A DNA stretch of 35,388 nucleotides from the NCBI GenBank assembly GCA_020723165.1, contig DYJK01000017.1, positions 9,646 through 45,033 of the forward strand, given 5' to 3'. Under the pieces are notes generated by a model. It searched no databases. It saw nothing but the letters and a program-made list of their open reading frames with translations, and was not told the origin of the DNA. Made by a program: the position numbers and the translations under genes. Below are positions 27,966 to 35,388 of this stretch, piece by piece (position 1 is the first letter of the stretch; every line of letters begins with the position of its first letter). This stretch comes from Melioribacter roseus (lineage in GTDB: Bacteria > Bacteroidota > Ignavibacteria > Ignavibacteriales > Melioribacteraceae).

Positions 27966-28054
27966 CCCGGTGACAATTTTTTACAATTAATTACACATTA
28001 ATGACTTTAAATAAAACTCAATATTGTAAGTTGAAATCAAAATTAGGCAGAGCA

Positions 28055-29140
28055 ATGAATCTGAAGATAAATCTGAAAAATAAATATTTCTTCAATGCAC
28101 TCCCCTTAATGCTATACTTCTTTCTCTTTGCCGGTGGTAATGTTCATGCGCAAGAGATGAACAAATTGATAGACCTTAGAGGATTGTGGCGGTTCACAAT
28201 AGGTGATGATGCCAAATGGTCTAAGCCGGAGACAAACACAAGTGACTGGGAAATTGTTAAAGTTCCATCTTCCTGGGAAAACGAAGGATTTCACGGTTAC
28301 GATGGTTATGCCTGGTACAGAAAAAATTTCAAAGTTCCATCGGCTTTTAAGGGAAAGAGTATAGCATTAAATTTAGGAAGAGTGGATGACGTTGACGAAA
28401 TTTATTTCAACGGTCAGCTTATCGGCTACTCAGGTTCGTTTCCACCGGATTATTCAACTGCGTATTATGCCTGGAGGAAATATACCGTTCCGGAAAATCT
28501 TATCAGGTTTGATAAAGATAATGTTATTACGGTAAGGGTGTATGATGCGGAATTGGATGGCGGAATATTAGAAGGGGAGATTGGTCTGTATGAAATGAAA
28601 AACTGGGATCTGGATTTGGTGGGCATATGGAAAATAATTTTGGATGACGATCCTTCTTACAAAGAGAAAAATTTTAACGATAAGAATTGGGACAATGTTT
28701 ACGTTCCCGGTTATTGGGAAACTCAAGGTTATGAAGATTACGATGGGTATGCGTGGTATCGTTACACATTTTTTGTACCGGAAAAATTGAAAGGAAAAAA
28801 ACTTGTTCTGCTTGCCGGCAAGATTGATGATTTTGATGAAACATATCTCAACGGTAAACTTATCGGTTCAACCGGGCCGATAAATAATATTCCGCGCAGA
28901 ATGGATAACAGAGGCGAGTGGCAGAAAGTTAGATCGTATCAAATACCGGATAACACTTTGCAGTTTGGTAAAGAGAATACAATTGCTGTCCGTGTTTACG
29001 ATGGATATGTTAATGGTGGAATACACGAGGGACCGCTAGCAATACTAACACAAGAAAATTATACAAAATACTGGCGAAAGCAGCGTACCGAAAACAATCA
29101 AAGTCTTTGGGAAAAATTTTGGGAAGATCTTTTTGATTAG
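28055..29140 (+). CDS. Secreted protein with two tandem GH2-type carbohydrate-binding jelly-rolls
   Basis: The 361-aa product has a signal peptide (about residues 1-33, ending GGNVHAQ) and two homologous domains at about 38-181 and 184-345. They share W-(E/Q)-x-x-G-(F/Y)-x-x-YDGYAWYR, G-x-x-DD-x-DE-x-Y-x-NG and a final VRVYD. These are the sugar-binding domain hallmarks of glycoside hydrolase family 2, but the catalytic barrel is missing. It probably binds a glycan or is an accessory subunit at the cell surface. The start could be the ATG at 28001, but the signal peptide favours 28055. Tail residues WRKQRTENNQSLWEKFWED form a charged helix. No catalytic role is claimed. Confidence 0.85.
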   Translation: MNLKINLKNKYFFNALPLMLYFFLFAGGNVHAQEMNKLIDLRGLWRFTIGDDAKWSKPETNTSDWEIVKVPSSWENEGFHGYDGYAWYRKNFKVPSAFKGKSIALNLGRVDDVDEIYFNGQLIGYSGSFPPDYSTAYYAWRKYTVPENLIRFDKDNVITVRVYDAELDGGILEGEIGLYEMKNWDLDLVGIWKIILDDDPSYKEKNFNDKNWDNVYVPGYWETQGYEDYDGYAWYRYTFFVPEKLKGKKLVLLAGKIDDFDETYLNGKLIGSTGPINNIPRRMDNRGEWQKVRSYQIPDNTLQFGKENTIAVRVYDGYVNGGIHEGPLAILTQENYTKYWRKQRTENNQSLWEKFWEDLFD

Positions 29141-29245
29141 CGGAGGAAGTCTTCATCTGGATGTAGTGAGTAAAACTATCTCAAGTTATTTTTATACCTA
29201 AGTAATCACGTAAGTAGTAATCCGTTTGTAAAGAATCGACGTTTG

Positions 29246-29263
29246 TCCCGCCTAGCGGACGGG
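29246..29263. repeat. CCCGCC palindrome inside the RHS fragment
   Basis: TCCCGCCTAGCGGACGGG, a bulged hairpin. The core GTCCCGCCTA(A/G)CGG is shared with the tracrRNA 3' hairpin at 5137-5154. It interrupts the RHS frame in multiples of three. Confidence 0.8.
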
Positions 29264-29312
29264 CAAGTTTTTTAATACGTTCACCGTTATCATTGTATGT
29301 GTAGTTGTAATT

Positions 29313-29340
29313 GTGGTTCGACAAGCTCACCACAAGTGGT
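29313..29340. repeat. GTGGTTCGACAAGCTCACCAC-type repeat in the RHS fragment
   Basis: The arms GTGGT and ACCAC flank TCGACAAGCTC, and ACCACAAGTGGT adds a second small palindrome. Translated on the minus strand it yields VVSLSNH. It is absent from the matching position of the intact RHS gene. Confidence 0.75.
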
Positions 29341-29506
29341 AGGTTATTATGGTTGTAATCATTCATTGTTATGCCTCTTAATCCATCGTTTGTCACATTG
29401 CCTTTTGTATCATAAGCGAAGGAATAATTACTTCCGTTCAAAGTAACGCTCTCAATTTTGTTATCGGCATTGGTGTAATTGTAAGCAATGCTGCTACCGA
29501 CGCAAA

Positions 29507-29559: not shown

Positions 29560-29958
29560 CTATTGATTTTCTTTCAACGAGCTAAATATCTTTTTAGCTT
29601 TATTATTTAATTTAGAATAGAAAGCAACAAAGTATTTTTCTTCTAATTGGAGATTGTAAAAAATTTCCTCACGTAGTATTCTTTCCCCTTCGGAATGTTC
29701 GCTTGTGGCTAATTCATTCATTACATTATAGCATAAATTCAGTGTGTTGGAATTATCGTCATCTAGTGATTTTTCGTATTCATTTTTCAATATCCTTTCA
29801 AAAAAATTTCTAAATGTTACACAAATTATACTATTGTTGGTTCTTTCGTAATCGGTTAATTGACTAAACTCTACACATTTCTTAAATGCTTCAACCCTAT
29901 TAGTGAAATATTCATTCATGTTTAAGAAAGGGTTTTCTTTTAGAATGAAGTTAACCAT
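29560..29958 (-). CDS. Putative immunity protein for the RHS toxin
   Basis: Not recognised by sequence. The 132-aa product is small, acidic to neutral, soluble and probably helical (EYFTNRVEAFKKCVEFSQLT, LCYNVMNELATSEHSEGERI), without a signal peptide. It starts 1 base after the RHS stop codon, and its AGGAGGA ribosome-binding site is formed by the last codons (Gly-Gly-Lys) of the toxin, so translation must be coupled. That arrangement is what is expected of a cognate immunity gene. It is followed by a probable terminator. Confidence 0.7.
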   Translation of the reverse strand: MVNFILKENPFLNMNEYFTNRVEAFKKCVEFSQLTDYERTNNSIICVTFRNFFERILKNEYEKSLDDDNSNTLNLCYNVMNELATSEHSEGERILREEIFYNLQLEEKYFVAFYSKLNNKAKKIFSSLKENQ

Positions 29959-29959
29959 A

Positions 29960-32900
29960 CTATTTTCCTCCTAATGCATTTTGTATGTCAATCAGAATGT
30001 TTTTTAAAATTGCTCTATCTTTTGATGACAAGTTCTCATTGCGCATAATATTAATTAGATTATCTCGATAATTAATTAATTTTTGAGCGTGTGTTCCTTC
30101 ATATCTAAACGCATCCATAGAACTTCCGCTTCCGATTTTAGCACCTTGTCTATATAGTTCATTAATTGCATTTTTTAAACGTGGGTTTGTTACAGCATTT
30201 AATAATGTTTGTCTAGCTGTTGGTAATAAATTTAACGTCGCCGGCATAGGTAAAGGTGCTGATTCTTTAAGAGCCAAATCAACGATCGATAAGATCGACT
30301 TTGCTAAATAGTAAGGTGTTGTATACTGATTGCCAGCGTTGATACTTTCCCATGCTTTTTCAATGTTTTCTTTAGCTTCAGCTCTTGCTAATAAAACGCT
30401 TTGAACCCACTTTGTCCATGGTTCTTGAGGTCTTTCTGCGGTAACTACAATTTCCGGTAATATTATTTCTTTATTTTTCTTTTCAGGCTCATCTGTGTCT
30501 AGTCCAAATTCATCAATATAATTCATTGGAGTGCACAAAGTATAATTATATGGTGACCACCCTGGATACTTTTCAGAAAGTGGGTCAACTTGTAACCACA
30601 CACCCAATTTGTTGTTATAGTACCGTGCACCCCCGCAAATAGCGGGGTAAACTCCATAATCATTTCCGCTTTCTTCATCTCTCTCTTTTTCGGTTAGCAT
30701 GTAACGGCTGTTGTTAAATTGCCTAATTGTTTCACCATACGGATAGTAATCAAAAGCAGAAACAACGTTGCCACTATTATCGAGTACACTTCTAATACTT
30801 CCCAAATGGTCTTTTAAATAATAATATCTATTTGTTGTACTGTCGGTTAATTCTATTTTGCCAACTAATCCGTTACCAAAGATATTTACTTCTTTCGGTT
30901 GATTGCTTTCATAACTGTAAACAACAAGTTCTCTGCCCAAATAATCTCGTAAGTAGTAATCTGTTTGCAATGAATCTGTGTTTTGCTTTTTAATTCTTTC
31001 GCTGGCATCGTTGTAACTGTAACGCATGTTGTTGGTTGTTAGTGGAAGGTTGTTTCGGTTGTAGTCACCCATTATTGTTCCGCTTAATCCATCGTTTGTC
31101 ACATTGCCTTTTGTATCGTAAGCAAAAGAATAATTGCTTCCGTTCAATCCAACAGTGTTAATTCTATTAGTTCCGTTAACAGCAGTCATTGATAGAACAT
31201 TATTTGTCCGGTTCTTAGTCATTATTCTGCCATCACCGTTGTAAGTATAACTTTCAGAATTATCCGGGATAGTTGAACTTGCATTAGTTAATCTGTTCAT
31301 ATCATCGTAAGTAAAAGCATAAGTATAATCGCCCCATGTTCCGTCGCCAACGTTATGAACTTTCTGTGTATCAATGTTGCCGCTTGCAGAAAATCTCAAA
31401 TATTCTGTGAACATTCCGCCCGAATGGATAACATCCTTCAACAATCCGCGGTATTTGTCGTAATCATAATCAATAGTTCCTATAGGGCCAGGACTGAAAT
31501 AATCAACCTGGTCGGCGGTATTATAATTATAGACAGCATCGGTTTGTTGAGTATTGTTTGGTGTTTTACTGCTCACTTGTTGTAATCTGCTCTGTGCATC
31601 GTAAACATAATTAAATGTAAAAAGACTATCTACATCTATCTGCGTCATGTTGCCGAGATTATCATACTTGTAAGAAATAGTCCTTGTTCTATCTAAGATC
31701 ACATTATAAAGAAGGGAATCGGAAAGTTCGCCGCTTACAACTTTGAATAAATGATTACCGGTTTTCAAGTACATGAAATTATGCACCAATTTTCCAACGC
31801 CGGCATTGTCTTCCGTGATAAGTGAATCATTATCATAGATTTTGTAGATGCCGGAAAAATTCCTCAAGAAGTAGAACTTAACCGTATCAGGACCAAAAGA
31901 AGGAGAAGGTGGATCAATTTCATCAACGAGTATTTGCAGTTTCTTGTTTAATGTGTAAAGAAGTGAATCTGTACCGGTTCCGGTAGAATCGGCAACAGTA
32001 ACAATAAAATCCCGTGTTCCGGCTTCGATACCGTTTACGATAAATTGGTTAGAGCCGGTATTTGTAGTAATAGAATCAACCACGGTAGTATCGGAGAAGA
32101 CTGAATCGGGAGTCCAAAAAAGTTTTGCCGTTCCGATTCTGTTAGTTGTAAAGAAAACTGTAATAGTGTCCGGCACCGGAATGGAAGCCGAAGGTGGGGA
32201 AACACTGTCGATAGTAACAGTAGGCGGCTCGGTAATTAGGTAATTAATAGAATCTGTTTGCGTACTGCTAACAACTTTAAGAATATGCTCACCAACGGAA
32301 AGATTAACAAAACTGTAATCAAAATTTCCGCTGTTTGCACCGGTTGTAAAGAGATTTATACCGTTATCATAAATTTCGTAAATGCCGTCAAAGTTACGTG
32401 TAAAGTAGAGTCTAACGGTATCGGGCAGAGCAGCCGGGGATTGCGGCTCTACATTTGTGATAACGAGTTTTTCGTTTAGAACATAATCGATCGAGTCCGC
32501 AGTCGTTCCGTTTACATTTGCAACAGAAACTTTTAGTTCGTGTGTACCGGCAGTAAGATTACCTAAGAAGTAATGATAAGTACCGGCACCGGTTCCATCG
32601 CTGCCAATGTTAACATCATCAACTAAAAAGTTAAGTGTACCGGCATCTGTTGTAAATTCCATATCAACCGTATCAGGAGCCGGTGATGATGCAGATGGAG
32701 GTGTAACTCCCAATATTTTTATTCCATTTTTTAAAATGTTATCGCTGATAACGGCAGATTCACCCCAGTCGGTTTTTACTTGTAAGTAAACGGTTTTATT
32801 TCCGTACGGAGCGCTCAATTCAAAAACCGGTGTACCGGCCGGCATAAAAGGTAGCCATATAGCATTACTAAAATCAGGAGACTCGCTTGCCCGGTAGTAA

Positions 32901-35388
32901 GTTACCGGCACTTGTGACGATACAGTATAGTTAAGATCAACATTAGCGTTCAATGTATATTCATTACCGTTGTTTATTAGGAATGAAGTAATAACCGGCG
33001 GCTCGGGCAGATAATTAATACTGTCGCTTACAACATTTGATTCACCGTACTGATTCTTTACTTTAAAGTAAAGAATCTTTAATCCGTATCCGTTAGATTG
33101 ATTGATTTCAAAATATGGAGAGGGTGAATAACCTGACCAGATTGTTTCGGGAAGATTTGAGTCTTCGCTTGCTATGTATTGTGTAGGTGAATTTGTAGCA
33201 CTGTTATTAAGAACTACAATACTATTTGTTGTTGACGCTTCACCGTTATTGATGCTGAATAATGTTACCACCGGTATAGGAATATTAATTGTAACTGAAC
33301 TGCTGTCTTCAGCGGACCAGGTGCCTTCGTCATCTTTTACTTTGAAATAAATTGTATGGGTACCGGTGCTTAACGATGATGTCGTAAAAACAGAAGAAGT
33401 GCTAATAGTATCATCTAAACTTGATCTCCATAAATACATTTGAATGTTTCCGCTGTCCGGGTCGGTTCCGCTTCCGTTGAAATCAACCGGTTCGCCTATG
33501 TACGCTATTGAAGGGGAAATTGAATTAATGATAGCGATCGGTAATTCATTACCGATGCTATAATTTGCAAAGTCATCAACTGTAACATAAGCTGTAGTTA
33601 GTGAAGCATGAATTGTGTAATCACCCGGAGAAGGGGCGGTCATTATTTTTGTGATTGTCCCGGCAGATGTAACTTCGAACGTTTGTGAGTAGTAACCTGA
33701 ACTGTAGAACGCAATATTTATTGTGCCGGGTTGATTGTATGAAAGTGTTACTTCTAAATCGAGAGGTCCAAAACCCGACCCGATTGCACGTTGAACGGTA
33801 TCGATAGTAATTAAAGTTGTTGGGTATATAGTTACGAGATCACCAATTTCGTTTGACCATTCGCCTTCGTTATCCTGGACTTTAAAAAATATTACATGAT
33901 TACCCACACTCAAAGAAGACGTACTAAACGAAGCGGAGTCGCTCAAAAAACCATCAATGCTTGATCTCCAATTGTACGCTTGAATTGCGCCGCCATCGGG
34001 ATCAGTACCACTGCCGGAAAAAGTAACAGTTGTCCCTTGTAATGCTCTATCGTGGGAGATAGAAGTAATTGATGCTGTTGGAAGAACATTATTGATAGTT
34101 AAAGATTGGCTCGATTCATAACCCCAGGCATTTTCATCATCCATAACTTTAAAGTAAATAGTATGGGTCCCGGGACTCAGAGTAGAATCGCTGAAGGAAG
34201 CGGAGGTGCTCAATTGACCATCGATACTTGATCTCCAGTTGTAACCTTGAATTGTGCCGCCATCCGGATCGTAGCCGCTCCCGGAGAAAGTTATGTTTGA
34301 ATTCCAATCAGCGGGGTTTGGAGAAATAGAATTTATTATTGCCCACGGTAAAGAATTTGCTACGGTATGATTATAAAAGTCATCAACAGTAACATAAGAA
34401 GTTGTTAATGATGCATGTATGGTAAAATTACCGGGCCATGGTGCAGTAAGTACCCTTGTCATTGTGCCGGCTGAAGTTACTTCGAATGTTTCGGTATCGT
34501 ATGCCTGGCTGTAAAACGAAATTGTAATTGTACCGGGCTGGTTATATGTAACAGTAACTTTAATATCGAGTGGACCGAAACCCGAACCGATTGCTTGTTT
34601 AACAGTATCAATGGTAATTGAAGTAGGCGGATAAATAGTAATAATATCTGCGTCTTCATTTGACCACCCACTTTCATTATCCTGGACTTTAAAGTAAATT
34701 ACATGATTTCCAACGCTGAGGGATGATGAATTAAATGAAGCTGAGTTACTCAATTGATCATCAATACTTGATCTCCAATTGTACGCTTGAATTGCGCCAC
34801 CATCGGGATCGGTACCACTGCCGGAAAAAGTAACAGTTGTCCCTTGTAATGCTCTATCGTGGGAGATAGAAGTAATTGATGCTGTTGGAAGAACATTATT
34901 GATAGTTAAAGATTGGCTCGATTCATAACCCCAGGCATTTTCATTGTCTTTAACCTTGAAGTAAATAGTATGGGTCCCCGGACTTAAAGTGTTATCGCTA
35001 AAAGTAGCAGAAGTACTTAACTGTCCGTCGATGCTTGATCTCCAATTATATCCTTGAATGGCACCGCCGTCCGGATCAGAACCGCTTCCGTTAAAAGTAA
35101 CTTCGGTTCCCCAATTTGCCGGATTTGGAGTAATCGAACTGATGGTAGCAGTCGGCGATGCATTGTTTACGGTAACAGTTGTTGTAACACTTGCCCATGC
35201 ACCTTCATTGTCTTGTGCATAGAATGTTAAAGTATGAGTACCAACACTCAAAACATAACTATAAGTATTAGTGTTGCTAATTACACCATTGATACTGGAA
35301 ACCCAACGATAAGCTTGAATGGTTCCACCATCCGGATCGGAAGCATTACCGGCACCGGTGAAAGTTTGTCCGTACGTTCCCGAGGTTG
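29960..35388 (-). CDS. Giant PKD-repeat/YD-repeat (RHS) polymorphic toxin, 5' end outside window
   Basis: The frame is open to the right edge, so the visible part (about 1809 codons) lacks its N-terminus and export signal. The TTG at 35251 is internal: upstream codons still read as PKD-type sequence (NASDPDGGTIQAYRWVSS). Order toward the C-terminus: at least five visible PKD-like units (SGSGTDPDGGAIQAYNWRSS type) interleaved with two CARDB-like units; several other beta-domains; YD repeats (YKYDNLGNMTQID, YTYNGDGRIM, YSFAYDTKGNV); the RHS-associated core (YYYLKDHLGSIRSVLDNSGN, YYPYGETI, VDPLSEKYPGWSPYNYTL); linker EIIDEFGLDTDEPEKK-like; and a variable tail of about 200 residues ending DAFRYEGTHAQKLINYRDN and LKNILIDIQNALGGK. 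By family knowledge the shell encloses the tail toxin; its activity is not identified. A 132-aa gene follows at once. Confidence 0.92.
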   Translation of the reverse strand, partial: TSGTYGQTFTGAGNASDPDGGTIQAYRWVSSINGVISNTNTYSYVLSVGTHTLTFYAQDNEGAWASVTTTVTVNNASPTATISSITPNPANWGTEVTFNGSGSDPDGGAIQGYNWRSSIDGQLSTSATFSDNTLSPGTHTIYFKVKDNENAWGYESSQSLTINNVLPTASITSISHDRALQGTTVTFSGSGTDPDGGAIQAYNWRSSIDDQLSNSASFNSSSLSVGNHVIYFKVQDNESGWSNEDADIITIYPPTSITIDTVKQAIGSGFGPLDIKVTVTYNQPGTITISFYSQAYDTETFEVTSAGTMTRVLTAPWPGNFTIHASLTTSYVTVDDFYNHTVANSLPWAIINSISPNPADWNSNITFSGSGYDPDGGTIQGYNWRSSIDGQLSTSASFSDSTLSPGTHTIYFKVMDDENAWGYESSQSLTINNVLPTASITSISHDRALQGTTVTFSGSGTDPDGGAIQAYNWRSSIDGFLSDSASFSTSSLSVGNHVIFFKVQDNEGEWSNEIGDLVTIYPTTLITIDTVQRAIGSGFGPLDLEVTLSYNQPGTINIAFYSSGYYSQTFEVTSAGTITKIMTAPSPGDYTIHASLTTAYVTVDDFANYSIGNELPIAIINSISPSIAYIGEPVDFNGSGTDPDSGNIQMYLWRSSLDDTISTSSVFTTSSLSTGTHTIYFKVKDDEGTWSAEDSSSVTINIPIPVVTLFSINNGEASTTNSIVVLNNSATNSPTQYIASEDSNLPETIWSGYSPSPYFEINQSNGYGLKILYFKVKNQYGESNVVSDSINYLPEPPVITSFLINNGNEYTLNANVDLNYTVSSQVPVTYYRASESPDFSNAIWLPFMPAGTPVFELSAPYGNKTVYLQVKTDWGESAVISDNILKNGIKILGVTPPSASSPAPDTVDMEFTTDAGTLNFLVDDVNIGSDGTGAGTYHYFLGNLTAGTHELKVSVANVNGTTADSIDYVLNEKLVITNVEPQSPAALPDTVRLYFTRNFDGIYEIYDNGINLFTTGANSGNFDYSFVNLSVGEHILKVVSSTQTDSINYLITEPPTVTIDSVSPPSASIPVPDTITVFFTTNRIGTAKLFWTPDSVFSDTTVVDSITTNTGSNQFIVNGIEAGTRDFIVTVADSTGTGTDSLLYTLNKKLQILVDEIDPPSPSFGPDTVKFYFLRNFSGIYKIYDNDSLITEDNAGVGKLVHNFMYLKTGNHLFKVVSGELSDSLLYNVILDRTRTISYKYDNLGNMTQIDVDSLFTFNYVYDAQSRLQQVSSKTPNNTQQTDAVYNYNTADQVDYFSPGPIGTIDYDYDKYRGLLKDVIHSGGMFTEYLRFSASGNIDTQKVHNVGDGTWGDYTYAFTYDDMNRLTNASSTIPDNSESYTYNGDGRIMTKNRTNNVLSMTAVNGTNRINTVGLNGSNYSFAYDTKGNVTNDGLSGTIMGDYNRNNLPLTTNNMRYSYNDASERIKKQNTDSLQTDYYLRDYLGRELVVYSYESNQPKEVNIFGNGLVGKIELTDSTTNRYYYLKDHLGSIRSVLDNSGNVVSAFDYYPYGETIRQFNNSRYMLTEKERDEESGNDYGVYPAICGGARYYNNKLGVWLQVDPLSEKYPGWSPYNYTLCTPMNYIDEFGLDTDEPEKKNKEIILPEIVVTAERPQEPWTKWVQSVLLARAEAKENIEKAWESINAGNQYTTPYYLAKSILSIVDLALKESAPLPMPATLNLLPTARQTLLNAVTNPRLKNAINELYRQGAKIGSGSSMDAFRYEGTHAQKLINYRDNLINIMRNENLSSKDRAILKNILIDIQNALGGK
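30631..30647. repeat. In-frame palindrome in the RHS core
   Basis: CCCCGC-AAATA-GCGGGG, a perfect 6-bp stem. In the protein it encodes the piece YPAICGG between DYGV and ARYYNNKLG, where RHS cores normally read YDYFGARYYDS. It looks like an inserted element kept in frame. Confidence 0.7.
33540..35150 (-). repeat. Tandem super-repeat of about 807 bases inside the RHS gene
   Basis: The PKD-PKD-CARDB-like block is present twice in tandem. Identical stretches start at 34024 and 34831 (TAACAGTTGTCCCTTGTAAT) and at 34091 and 34898, giving a constant 807-base (269-codon) offset. Identity is near complete over about 130 bases, more than the surrounding parts. Confidence 0.85.

What the first reader, a model, noticed from the sequence alone, without database searches (positions are those of the whole stretch)
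29181..29506. RHS fragment with two palindromes translated in frame
Against the intact copy within the same window, the fragment carries extra LARPLGGT and VVSLSNH peptides coded exactly by palindromic repeats. This shows directly that such elements enter coding sequence without breaking the frame. The fragment may also serve as recombination donor for the neighbouring RHS gene.
Basis: seen in the sequence. Interest (0 to 1): 0.6.

Follow-up and report, generated by a model that had tools for sequence, protein, structure and literature searches.

The report
Tiny palindrome inserted in frame

Summary
Partly confirmed. The RHS fragment (29181-29506, minus strand) is a relic of the core just upstream of the tip region of the neighbouring RHS gene. 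Only one of its two palindromes is an insertion. Palindrome B (29247-29267, LARPLGG) adds exactly 7 codons relative to the neighbour. Palindrome A (29311-29335, VVSLSNH) adds none relative to six of seven other RHS homologues; the neighbour is four residues short. B is a degenerate copy of a 21-bp unit, consensus CCCGCCTGCCGGACGGGCAGG. Empty-site comparisons show 21-nt in-frame insertions in prolyl-tRNA synthetase, alanyl-tRNA synthetase and a peptidyl-prolyl isomerase. Four genomes of at least three genera have it at the same AlaRS nucleotide, while close relatives are empty. Frame keeping follows from the length, 21 = 7 codons. In-frame palindromes are known (Rickettsia RPE, intragenic REPs, Cod-2); a unit this short, this widespread and recurring at one site was not found in my paper searches. 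What moves it is unknown. The fragment has no demonstrated start, and a donor role for the RHS gene is unsupported.

The parts
29181..29506 (-). RHS core relic, about 100 codons, matching the core just upstream of the RHS-associated core/tip region of the neighbouring gene; ends in a stop soon after the YYLRDYLG motif
   Evidence: third-position-biased divergence
29247..29267 (-). Palindrome B: 21-bp unit, degenerate copy of CCCGCCTGCCGGACGGGCAGG (3 differences by inspection), read on the minus strand as LARPLGG; 7-codon insertion relative to the neighbouring RHS gene
29311..29335 (-). Palindrome A: 7-bp stem around an 11-nt loop, containing the dispersed 18-mer GGTTCGACAAGCTCACCA; read as VVSLSNH; no net insertion relative to six of seven other RHS homologues
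30936..31147 (-). Segment of the intact RHS gene that matches the fragment; lacks B and is four residues shorter at the A position
29960..35251 (-). Intact RHS-type gene, 1763 aa as listed, PKD-type domains in the N-terminal part and Rhs_assc_core (TIGR03696) in the C-terminal part
29560..29958 (-). 132-aa ORF directly downstream of the RHS gene, no family match; position suggests an immunity-type partner (inference)

Best explanation
The fragment is a remnant of an RHS core, probably left when an RHS gene or cassette was duplicated and decayed. While its lineage was still coding, or before decay went far, it received one copy of a 21-bp palindromic REP-class unit (B). Because the unit is exactly seven codons long and its consensus has no stop codon in any frame, it can land in a gene in any phase and orientation and only add a heptapeptide (read as PARPAGG, LPVRQA(G), CPSGRR, PACRTGR, PPAGRA(G) or RLPDGQ). 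Selection then keeps the copies that fall where the protein tolerates seven residues. Palindrome A belongs to another dispersed hairpin family but did not lengthen the RHS protein; it either replaced sequence or arose within it. Shown: sequence, 21-nt gains, in-frame insertion in several genes, recurrence at one AlaRS site, wide distribution. Inferred: mobility, the hairpin as moving form, selection as filter, the relic's history.
For: Gain of 21 nt against empty sites: ProRS, 2 of 30 aligned loci filled (92 of 97 genomes had a match), congener of one filled genome empty. PPIase, 1 of 11 aligned loci filled, seven extra residues against L304-L306. AlaRS: of the 30 best-scoring loci read at the site, 1 carries the unit (L349), 1 a different insert (L374) and 28 neither; the congener G220 and five g139 genomes have spans 21 nt shorter than the filled query; a cytoplasmic AlaRS in the PDB (9x2h) also lacks the seven residues. 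RHS fragment +7 codons. The gain leaves no room for a target duplication. 132 distinct copies in 120 named stretches: 71 in frames of 200 codons or more; the 60 of those with 15 or more codons on both sides use all six frames. Of 114 copies with enough flank, 23 sit in-frame only between long open frames, 4 are ambiguous, 3 look shifted, 84 have no such frames; of the 3, by my reading, two sit at gene boundaries and one is GC-rich and ambiguous. Conservation does not extend beyond the 21 bp. The two free positions read GC in 108 of 132, about 1 in 16 expected by chance.
Against: My pattern fixed 18 of the 21 positions and limited one more, so the edge test shows only that conservation does not extend further. 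This genome holds few copies: 2 with up to 1 mismatch, 5 with up to 3. In 97 genomes B gave 73 matches at up to 2 mismatches, but the reversed control gave 10, so single weak matches may be chance. No mobiliser was linked: none of 24 Y1-transposase loci (21 distinct) has A or B near the gene by fixed patterns; L093 has two B copies about 5 kb away. In-frame length could partly be ascertainment, since frame-breaking insertions in genes would be purged. A consensus open in six frames is unremarkable: 84% of composition-matched shuffles are too. The PPIase of G048, congener of the filled G035, differs in spacer length from both. The window copy is degenerate and lies in a relic.
Confidence: 0.78

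Rival explanations
1. The fragment is simply dead DNA; frame conservation around the palindrome is coincidence and carries no information.
For: No start codon of its own; short; only a TTG-start ORF.
Against: 31 nucleotide differences to the RHS gene in three ungapped blocks fall 4/5/22 over codon positions 1/2/3, and the 108-codon frame is unbroken. The same unit preserves frame in essential genes.
Confidence: 0.2
2. Filled sites such as AlaRS are inherited from a common ancestor and were lost in other lineages, so the unit is not mobile now.
For: Same site and identical unit in three of the four filled genomes, one change in the fourth.
Against: Of 30 AlaRS loci read at the site only one has the unit, and five genomes with 91-98% identity to the filled query are 21 nt shorter. 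In ProRS the congener of a filled genome is empty. The unit is identical where the flanks are only 83-85% identical.
Confidence: 0.12
3. The recurrent same-site copies spread by short homologous recombination between related genes, not by repeated independent insertion.
For: Flanks at the AlaRS site are well conserved and would serve as homology.
Against: Flanks of filled genes differ by 15-17% from each other, so any exchanged tract must be short.
Confidence: 0.35
4. The unit is a sequencing, adapter or assembly artefact shared by metagenome bins.
For: Many of the 120 stretches are titled as metagenome-assembled genomes.
Against: Also in records titled as strains (Pedobacter sp. Leaf170, Aequorivita capsosiphonis DSM 23843, Flavobacterium soyangense), with substitutions, and in frame inside genes; a random adapter would not respect frame.
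Confidence: 0.03
5. Palindrome A is an insertion that was compensated by a deletion, so both palindromes entered the fragment.
For: Exact 18-nt match to a dispersed family with no match to the control pattern; stem of 7 bp.
Against: Six of seven other homologues have the same linker length as the fragment without the palindrome.
Confidence: 0.3

Closest known systems
GTAG- and CGTC-tagged REPs, including intragenic ones (Di Nocera et al. 2013, PMC3733652; abstract, background, first parts of the results, the distribution section and passages read)
   Same: Short palindromes; single units and inverted pairs; some inside genes and translated; tRNA synthetase and DNA repair genes among the hosts, as here; CGTC REPs reported in Chlorobi and Bacteroidetes; no dedicated transposase for CGTC REPs.
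   Different: Here a fixed 21-bp unit without the tag-stem layout in the window copy, low copy number in this genome, and nearly identical sequence across about eleven phylum-level groups. The consensus figure of that paper is not held, so I could not compare sequences.
Rickettsia palindromic elements, RPE (Ogata et al. 2000, 2002; papers not held or not seen; described in review PMC10969869, passages read)
   Same: Palindromic DNA inserted in frame in unrelated genes.
   Different: The review gives about 150 bp and Rickettsia as hosts; this unit is 21 bp and not confined to one lineage.
Cod-2 family (Cozzuto et al. 2008, PMC2267715; passages read)
   Same: A very small repeat in various coding sequences, giving different peptides in different frames.
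   Different: I did not compare the sequences; described there as one of many repeat families in a survey of 40 genomes.
REPIN/RAYT systems (PMC3116915, PMC2817692; search listings only)
   Same: Palindromes in inverted pairs, as in genome G003; Y1 transposases common in the relatives.
   Different: No Y1 gene found close to A or B in 24 loci, 21 of them distinct.

Membership tests
REP (repetitive extragenic palindrome) | 20-40 bp palindrome forming a stem-loop | tested here: met
   21-bp unit, hairpin at the window copy
REP (repetitive extragenic palindrome) | High copy number in the host genome | tested here: not met
   2 copies at up to 1 mismatch, 5 at up to 3, in 3.8 Mb; one relative, G003, has 29 at up to 2 mismatches
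REP (repetitive extragenic palindrome) | Mostly between genes | tested here: not met
   71 of 132 copies in frames of 200 codons or more; in G003 none of the 19 copies read is in such a frame
CGTC-tagged REP | CGTC at one end, stem starting with AT, CCA tail | tested here: inconclusive
   Layout absent at the window copy by inspection; in G003 the unit sits at the apex of CGTCAT...ATGACG hairpins in several copies
Rickettsia palindromic element | In-frame insertion into unrelated genes | tested here: met
   Empty-site comparisons and host gene list
Rickettsia palindromic element | Length of about 150 bp | tested here: not met
   Gain is 21 nt
REPIN/RAYT | Linked Y1 (RAYT) transposase gene flanked by the palindrome | tested here: not met
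   No A or B close to the gene in 24 Y1 loci (21 distinct), mostly about 1 kb of flank, fixed patterns only; L093 has two B copies about 5 kb away
MITE | Terminal inverted repeats and target-site duplication (definition partly recalled) | tested here: not met
   Gain equals the 21-bp unit, no duplication
RHS protein | RHS-associated core domain | tested here: met
   TIGR03696 in the intact gene, 44.7 bits against cut-off 32.5; the fragment shows only a weak YD-repeat match, 16.1 bits, E 0.012

The most novel reading that the evidence does not exclude
A single 21-bp palindromic unit, nearly invariant across about eleven phylum-level groups of bacteria, is a currently mobile element whose codon-multiple length makes it protein-safe. 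It inserts without target duplication, repeatedly at the same nucleotide of conserved genes such as alanyl- and prolyl-tRNA synthetase. It may be one of several 21-nt units: the same ProRS gene of G071 carries a second, different 21-nt in-frame insertion.
Probability: 0.35. Interest if true: 0.85.

Novelty: new variant of a known kind. Interest (0 to 1): 0.62.

Why it matters
It offers a clean, countable route by which proteins gain short peptides: one defined DNA unit, empty sites in close relatives, and essential enzymes as hosts. If same-site recurrence is confirmed, how so small a palindrome finds its site becomes directly testable, and short insertions seen in tRNA synthetases or repair proteins of these bacteria get a mechanical explanation. 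For the RHS locus itself the consequence is small.

Tried and rejected
Tried and dropped: (1) many copies of A or B in this genome: A exact 1 copy, and at 3 mismatches only 105 against 71 for the control; B 5 at up to 3 mismatches, control 0. (2) A as an insertion in PrpD of this genome: no gap in 18 aligned loci out of 74 genomes with a match. (3) RAYT linkage. (4) Known RNA family at the locus: one weak match below its gathering score, not at the fragment. (5) Phage spread: 17 stretches in the viral collection, 8 of them from one record set. (6) Six-frame openness as a special feature: not special. (7) Outer arms supplied by the target: first flanking pair 45 of 132 complementary against about 33.5 expected; pairs 2 and 3 give 29 and 30 against about 33. 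(8) Paper searches for the unit or its peptides: one unrelated paper; some searches gave the known kinds named above or unrelated papers. (9) TrpB of this genome as an insertion: the unit is near the N-terminus, before the part that aligns to solved structures, and I had no empty-site comparison.

Faults in my own runs: the row labelled rhs was read in a wrong frame and is void, and the script stopped before its last count; the neighbour's sequence is taken and the count was redone. In one search the L252 row was out of register, so its identities there are void; one search was used instead. Of the 26 of 59 copies in frames of 180 codons or more I regard four (L046, L061, L062, L066) as doubtful, leaving 22. 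Group labels were assigned by me from record titles. Lists of matches were cut by the tool; AlaRS genes beyond the 30 fetched loci were not read at the site.

Full report
What was checked. The finding says that an RHS fragment at 29181-29506 carries two extra peptides, LARPLGGT and VVSLSNH, each coded by a palindrome. I read the region, listed frames and aligned the minus-strand fragment with the RHS ORF 29960-35251. It matches at 86% over 107 nt and 85% over 41 nt. The gene is RHS-type by the Rhs_assc_core model with PKD-type domains upstream. The fragment is open over 108 codons without a clear start. Over 60 codons in three ungapped blocks the 31 differences fall 4, 5 and 22 on positions 1, 2 and 3, with 7 amino-acid changes; so most of the divergence happened under protein constraint. 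On the minus strand the order is RHS gene, a 132-aa ORF without family match, then the fragment. That is the layout I recall for displaced RHS core pieces in other bacteria (recalled, no call).

Palindrome B. The 21 nt at 29247-29267 are a seven-codon gain over the neighbouring gene: sequence on both sides stays in register. In this genome there is one further close copy, near the N-terminus of TrpB; whether it is an insertion there was not tested. In 97 genomes, this one included, 23 have matches at up to 2 mismatches: 73 matches in all against 10 for the reversed control. Of 59 distinct copies read, 26 lie in frames of 180 codons or more, 22 after dropping doubtful ones, and none of the 19 from genome G003 does. 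Host genes include ProRS, a peptidyl-prolyl isomerase, HsdM, a rhamnosidase, an AMP-binding enzyme, a short-chain dehydrogenase, Cas1 and proteins with C-terminal sorting domains; in some of these (one HsdM, Cas1) the unit lies before the matched domain.

Empty sites. ProRS was found in 92 of 97 genomes. In the 30 aligned loci two carry TRLPDGQ at the same position and 28 do not; the congener of one filled genome is empty, and the two PDB relatives shown also lack the residues, with a clean seven-residue gap in one. The isomerase of G035 has seven extra residues against its homologues L304-L306; its congener G048 has a different spacer, two residues longer than those.

Wide survey. The two open positions read GC in 108 of 132, and in 73 of 88 copies from loci under 45% GC, so chance matches are a minority. 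Conservation falls to background outside the 21 bp, though the pattern itself fixed most inner positions. 71 of 132 lie in frames of 200 codons or more; the 60 with at least 15 codons on both sides use all six frames. Of 114 copies with 300 nt on both sides, 23 lie in-frame only between open frames of 80 codons or more, 4 both ways, 3 shifted only and 84 have no such frames. Of the three shifted ones, by my reading, two sit at gene boundaries and one is GC-rich and ambiguous. The scripted chance of 23 or more in-frame out of 26 at one third is about 9e-9, but a fixed 21-nt length alone would give the same outcome. Host genes named by NCBIfam, in 19 named-genome frames scanned, include AlaRS (two scanned), LeuRS (three), MetRS, GatA, MutS, UvrA, PurL, a NifS/IscS-type cysteine desulfurase, MtaB, PEP synthase, a pyruvate dehydrogenase E2 and kynureninase; long conserved genes are larger targets, and I chose these frames, so this is not shown to be a preference. 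By record titles, copies with the GC loop in loci under 55% GC occur in 12 groups, or about eleven phyla if Ignavibacteria are counted with Bacteroidota.

Same-site recurrence. AlaRS carries PARPAGG (PARPTGG in Pedobacter sp. Leaf170) between FGD and YFK in four named records: Pedobacter, Mucilaginibacter, Sediminibacterium and a Chitinophagaceae bin. Three of these have an identical unit while the flanks are 83-85% identical. Over the phylum, 381 of 395 genomes had an AlaRS match. Of the 30 best loci, read at the site, one has the unit (L349, G166, the same genome as Leaf170 by 1751 identical bases), one (L374) a different insert and 28 neither. The congener of G166 and five g139 genomes, 91-98% identical to the filled query, are 21 nt shorter. 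A cytoplasmic AlaRS in the PDB lacks the residues. ProRS gives a second recurrent site. Either the unit inserts repeatedly at preferred places or short recombination carries it between related genes; I cannot decide.

Palindrome A. The hairpin is real and its 18-mer occurs in 9 of 97 genomes, this one included, control 0; in a few loci two such hairpins lie close together in opposite orientation (L011, L017, L029). But the fragment's linker has 12 residues, as in six of seven other homologues, and the intact neighbour has 8. So A is no extra peptide. In PrpD of this genome an A-like palindrome lies in sequence without length change. In L011, by contrast, an A pair lies in a sorting-domain-like end and may be an insertion (not tested with an empty site).

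How it most likely works. Shown: a 21-bp unit, seven-codon gains, no target duplication, all frames used, recurrence. Inferred: a hairpin form that is inserted precisely, with selection removing copies at intolerant places. Frame keeping needs no special mechanism beyond the length. Y1 transposases, the hypothesised movers of GTAG REPs, occur in 53 of 58 genomes searched and four times in this one, but none of 24 loci (21 distinct) has A or B close to the gene. In G003 the unit sits at the apex of larger hairpins arranged in inverted pairs, six pairs aligned, which resembles REP doublets.

Relation to what is known. In-frame palindromes are known from Rickettsia (RPE), intragenic REPs are known from several species with tRNA synthetases and repair genes among the hosts, and a tiny coding repeat read in different frames (Cod-2) was reported. 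My searches for the sequence or its peptides found no report, and related searches gave only these kinds or unrelated papers; subscription papers are mostly outside that library. I therefore call it a new variant of a known kind.

Verdict.

Noticed in passing
L122 positions 1501-2100 (ProRS of G071): A second 7-residue insertion (SQRDGKP, with a CCC-AAA-GGG palindrome) in the same gene, absent from the other 29 of 30 aligned loci. It hints at further 21-nt units.
   Followed up: partly
L374 (AlaRS of G451): A different insert at the AlaRS site where the 21-bp unit sits in other genomes.
   Followed up: no
L050, L068, L102, L103, L067, L116, L117, L118, L011, L227: C-terminal secretion sorting domains repeatedly carry palindrome-coded peptides in their loops, in different frames and from different palindrome families. 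Five were scanned and match Por_Secre_tail, one of them below the cut-off; the rest were judged by eye.
   Followed up: partly
L093, L106, L107, L111, L115 (genome G003): Repeated composite elements of about 150-170 nt ending in inverted B units; six copies aligned. The contig length of G003:C2 equals that of a record titled Ignavibacteriae bacterium isolate IGN16, which suggests the window's group.
   Followed up: partly
window 28001-29140: ORF with two stretches matching the glycosyl hydrolase family 2 sugar-binding domain and no catalytic domain match at E 0.001.
   Followed up: no
L162, L184, L218, L221, L222, L232, L244, L245, L254, L264 (termite-gut Bacillota bins): Two bins account for 17 of the 132 B copies, and one viral-collection record set holds many further copies. 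A high-copy host worth studying for a mobiliser.
   Followed up: no
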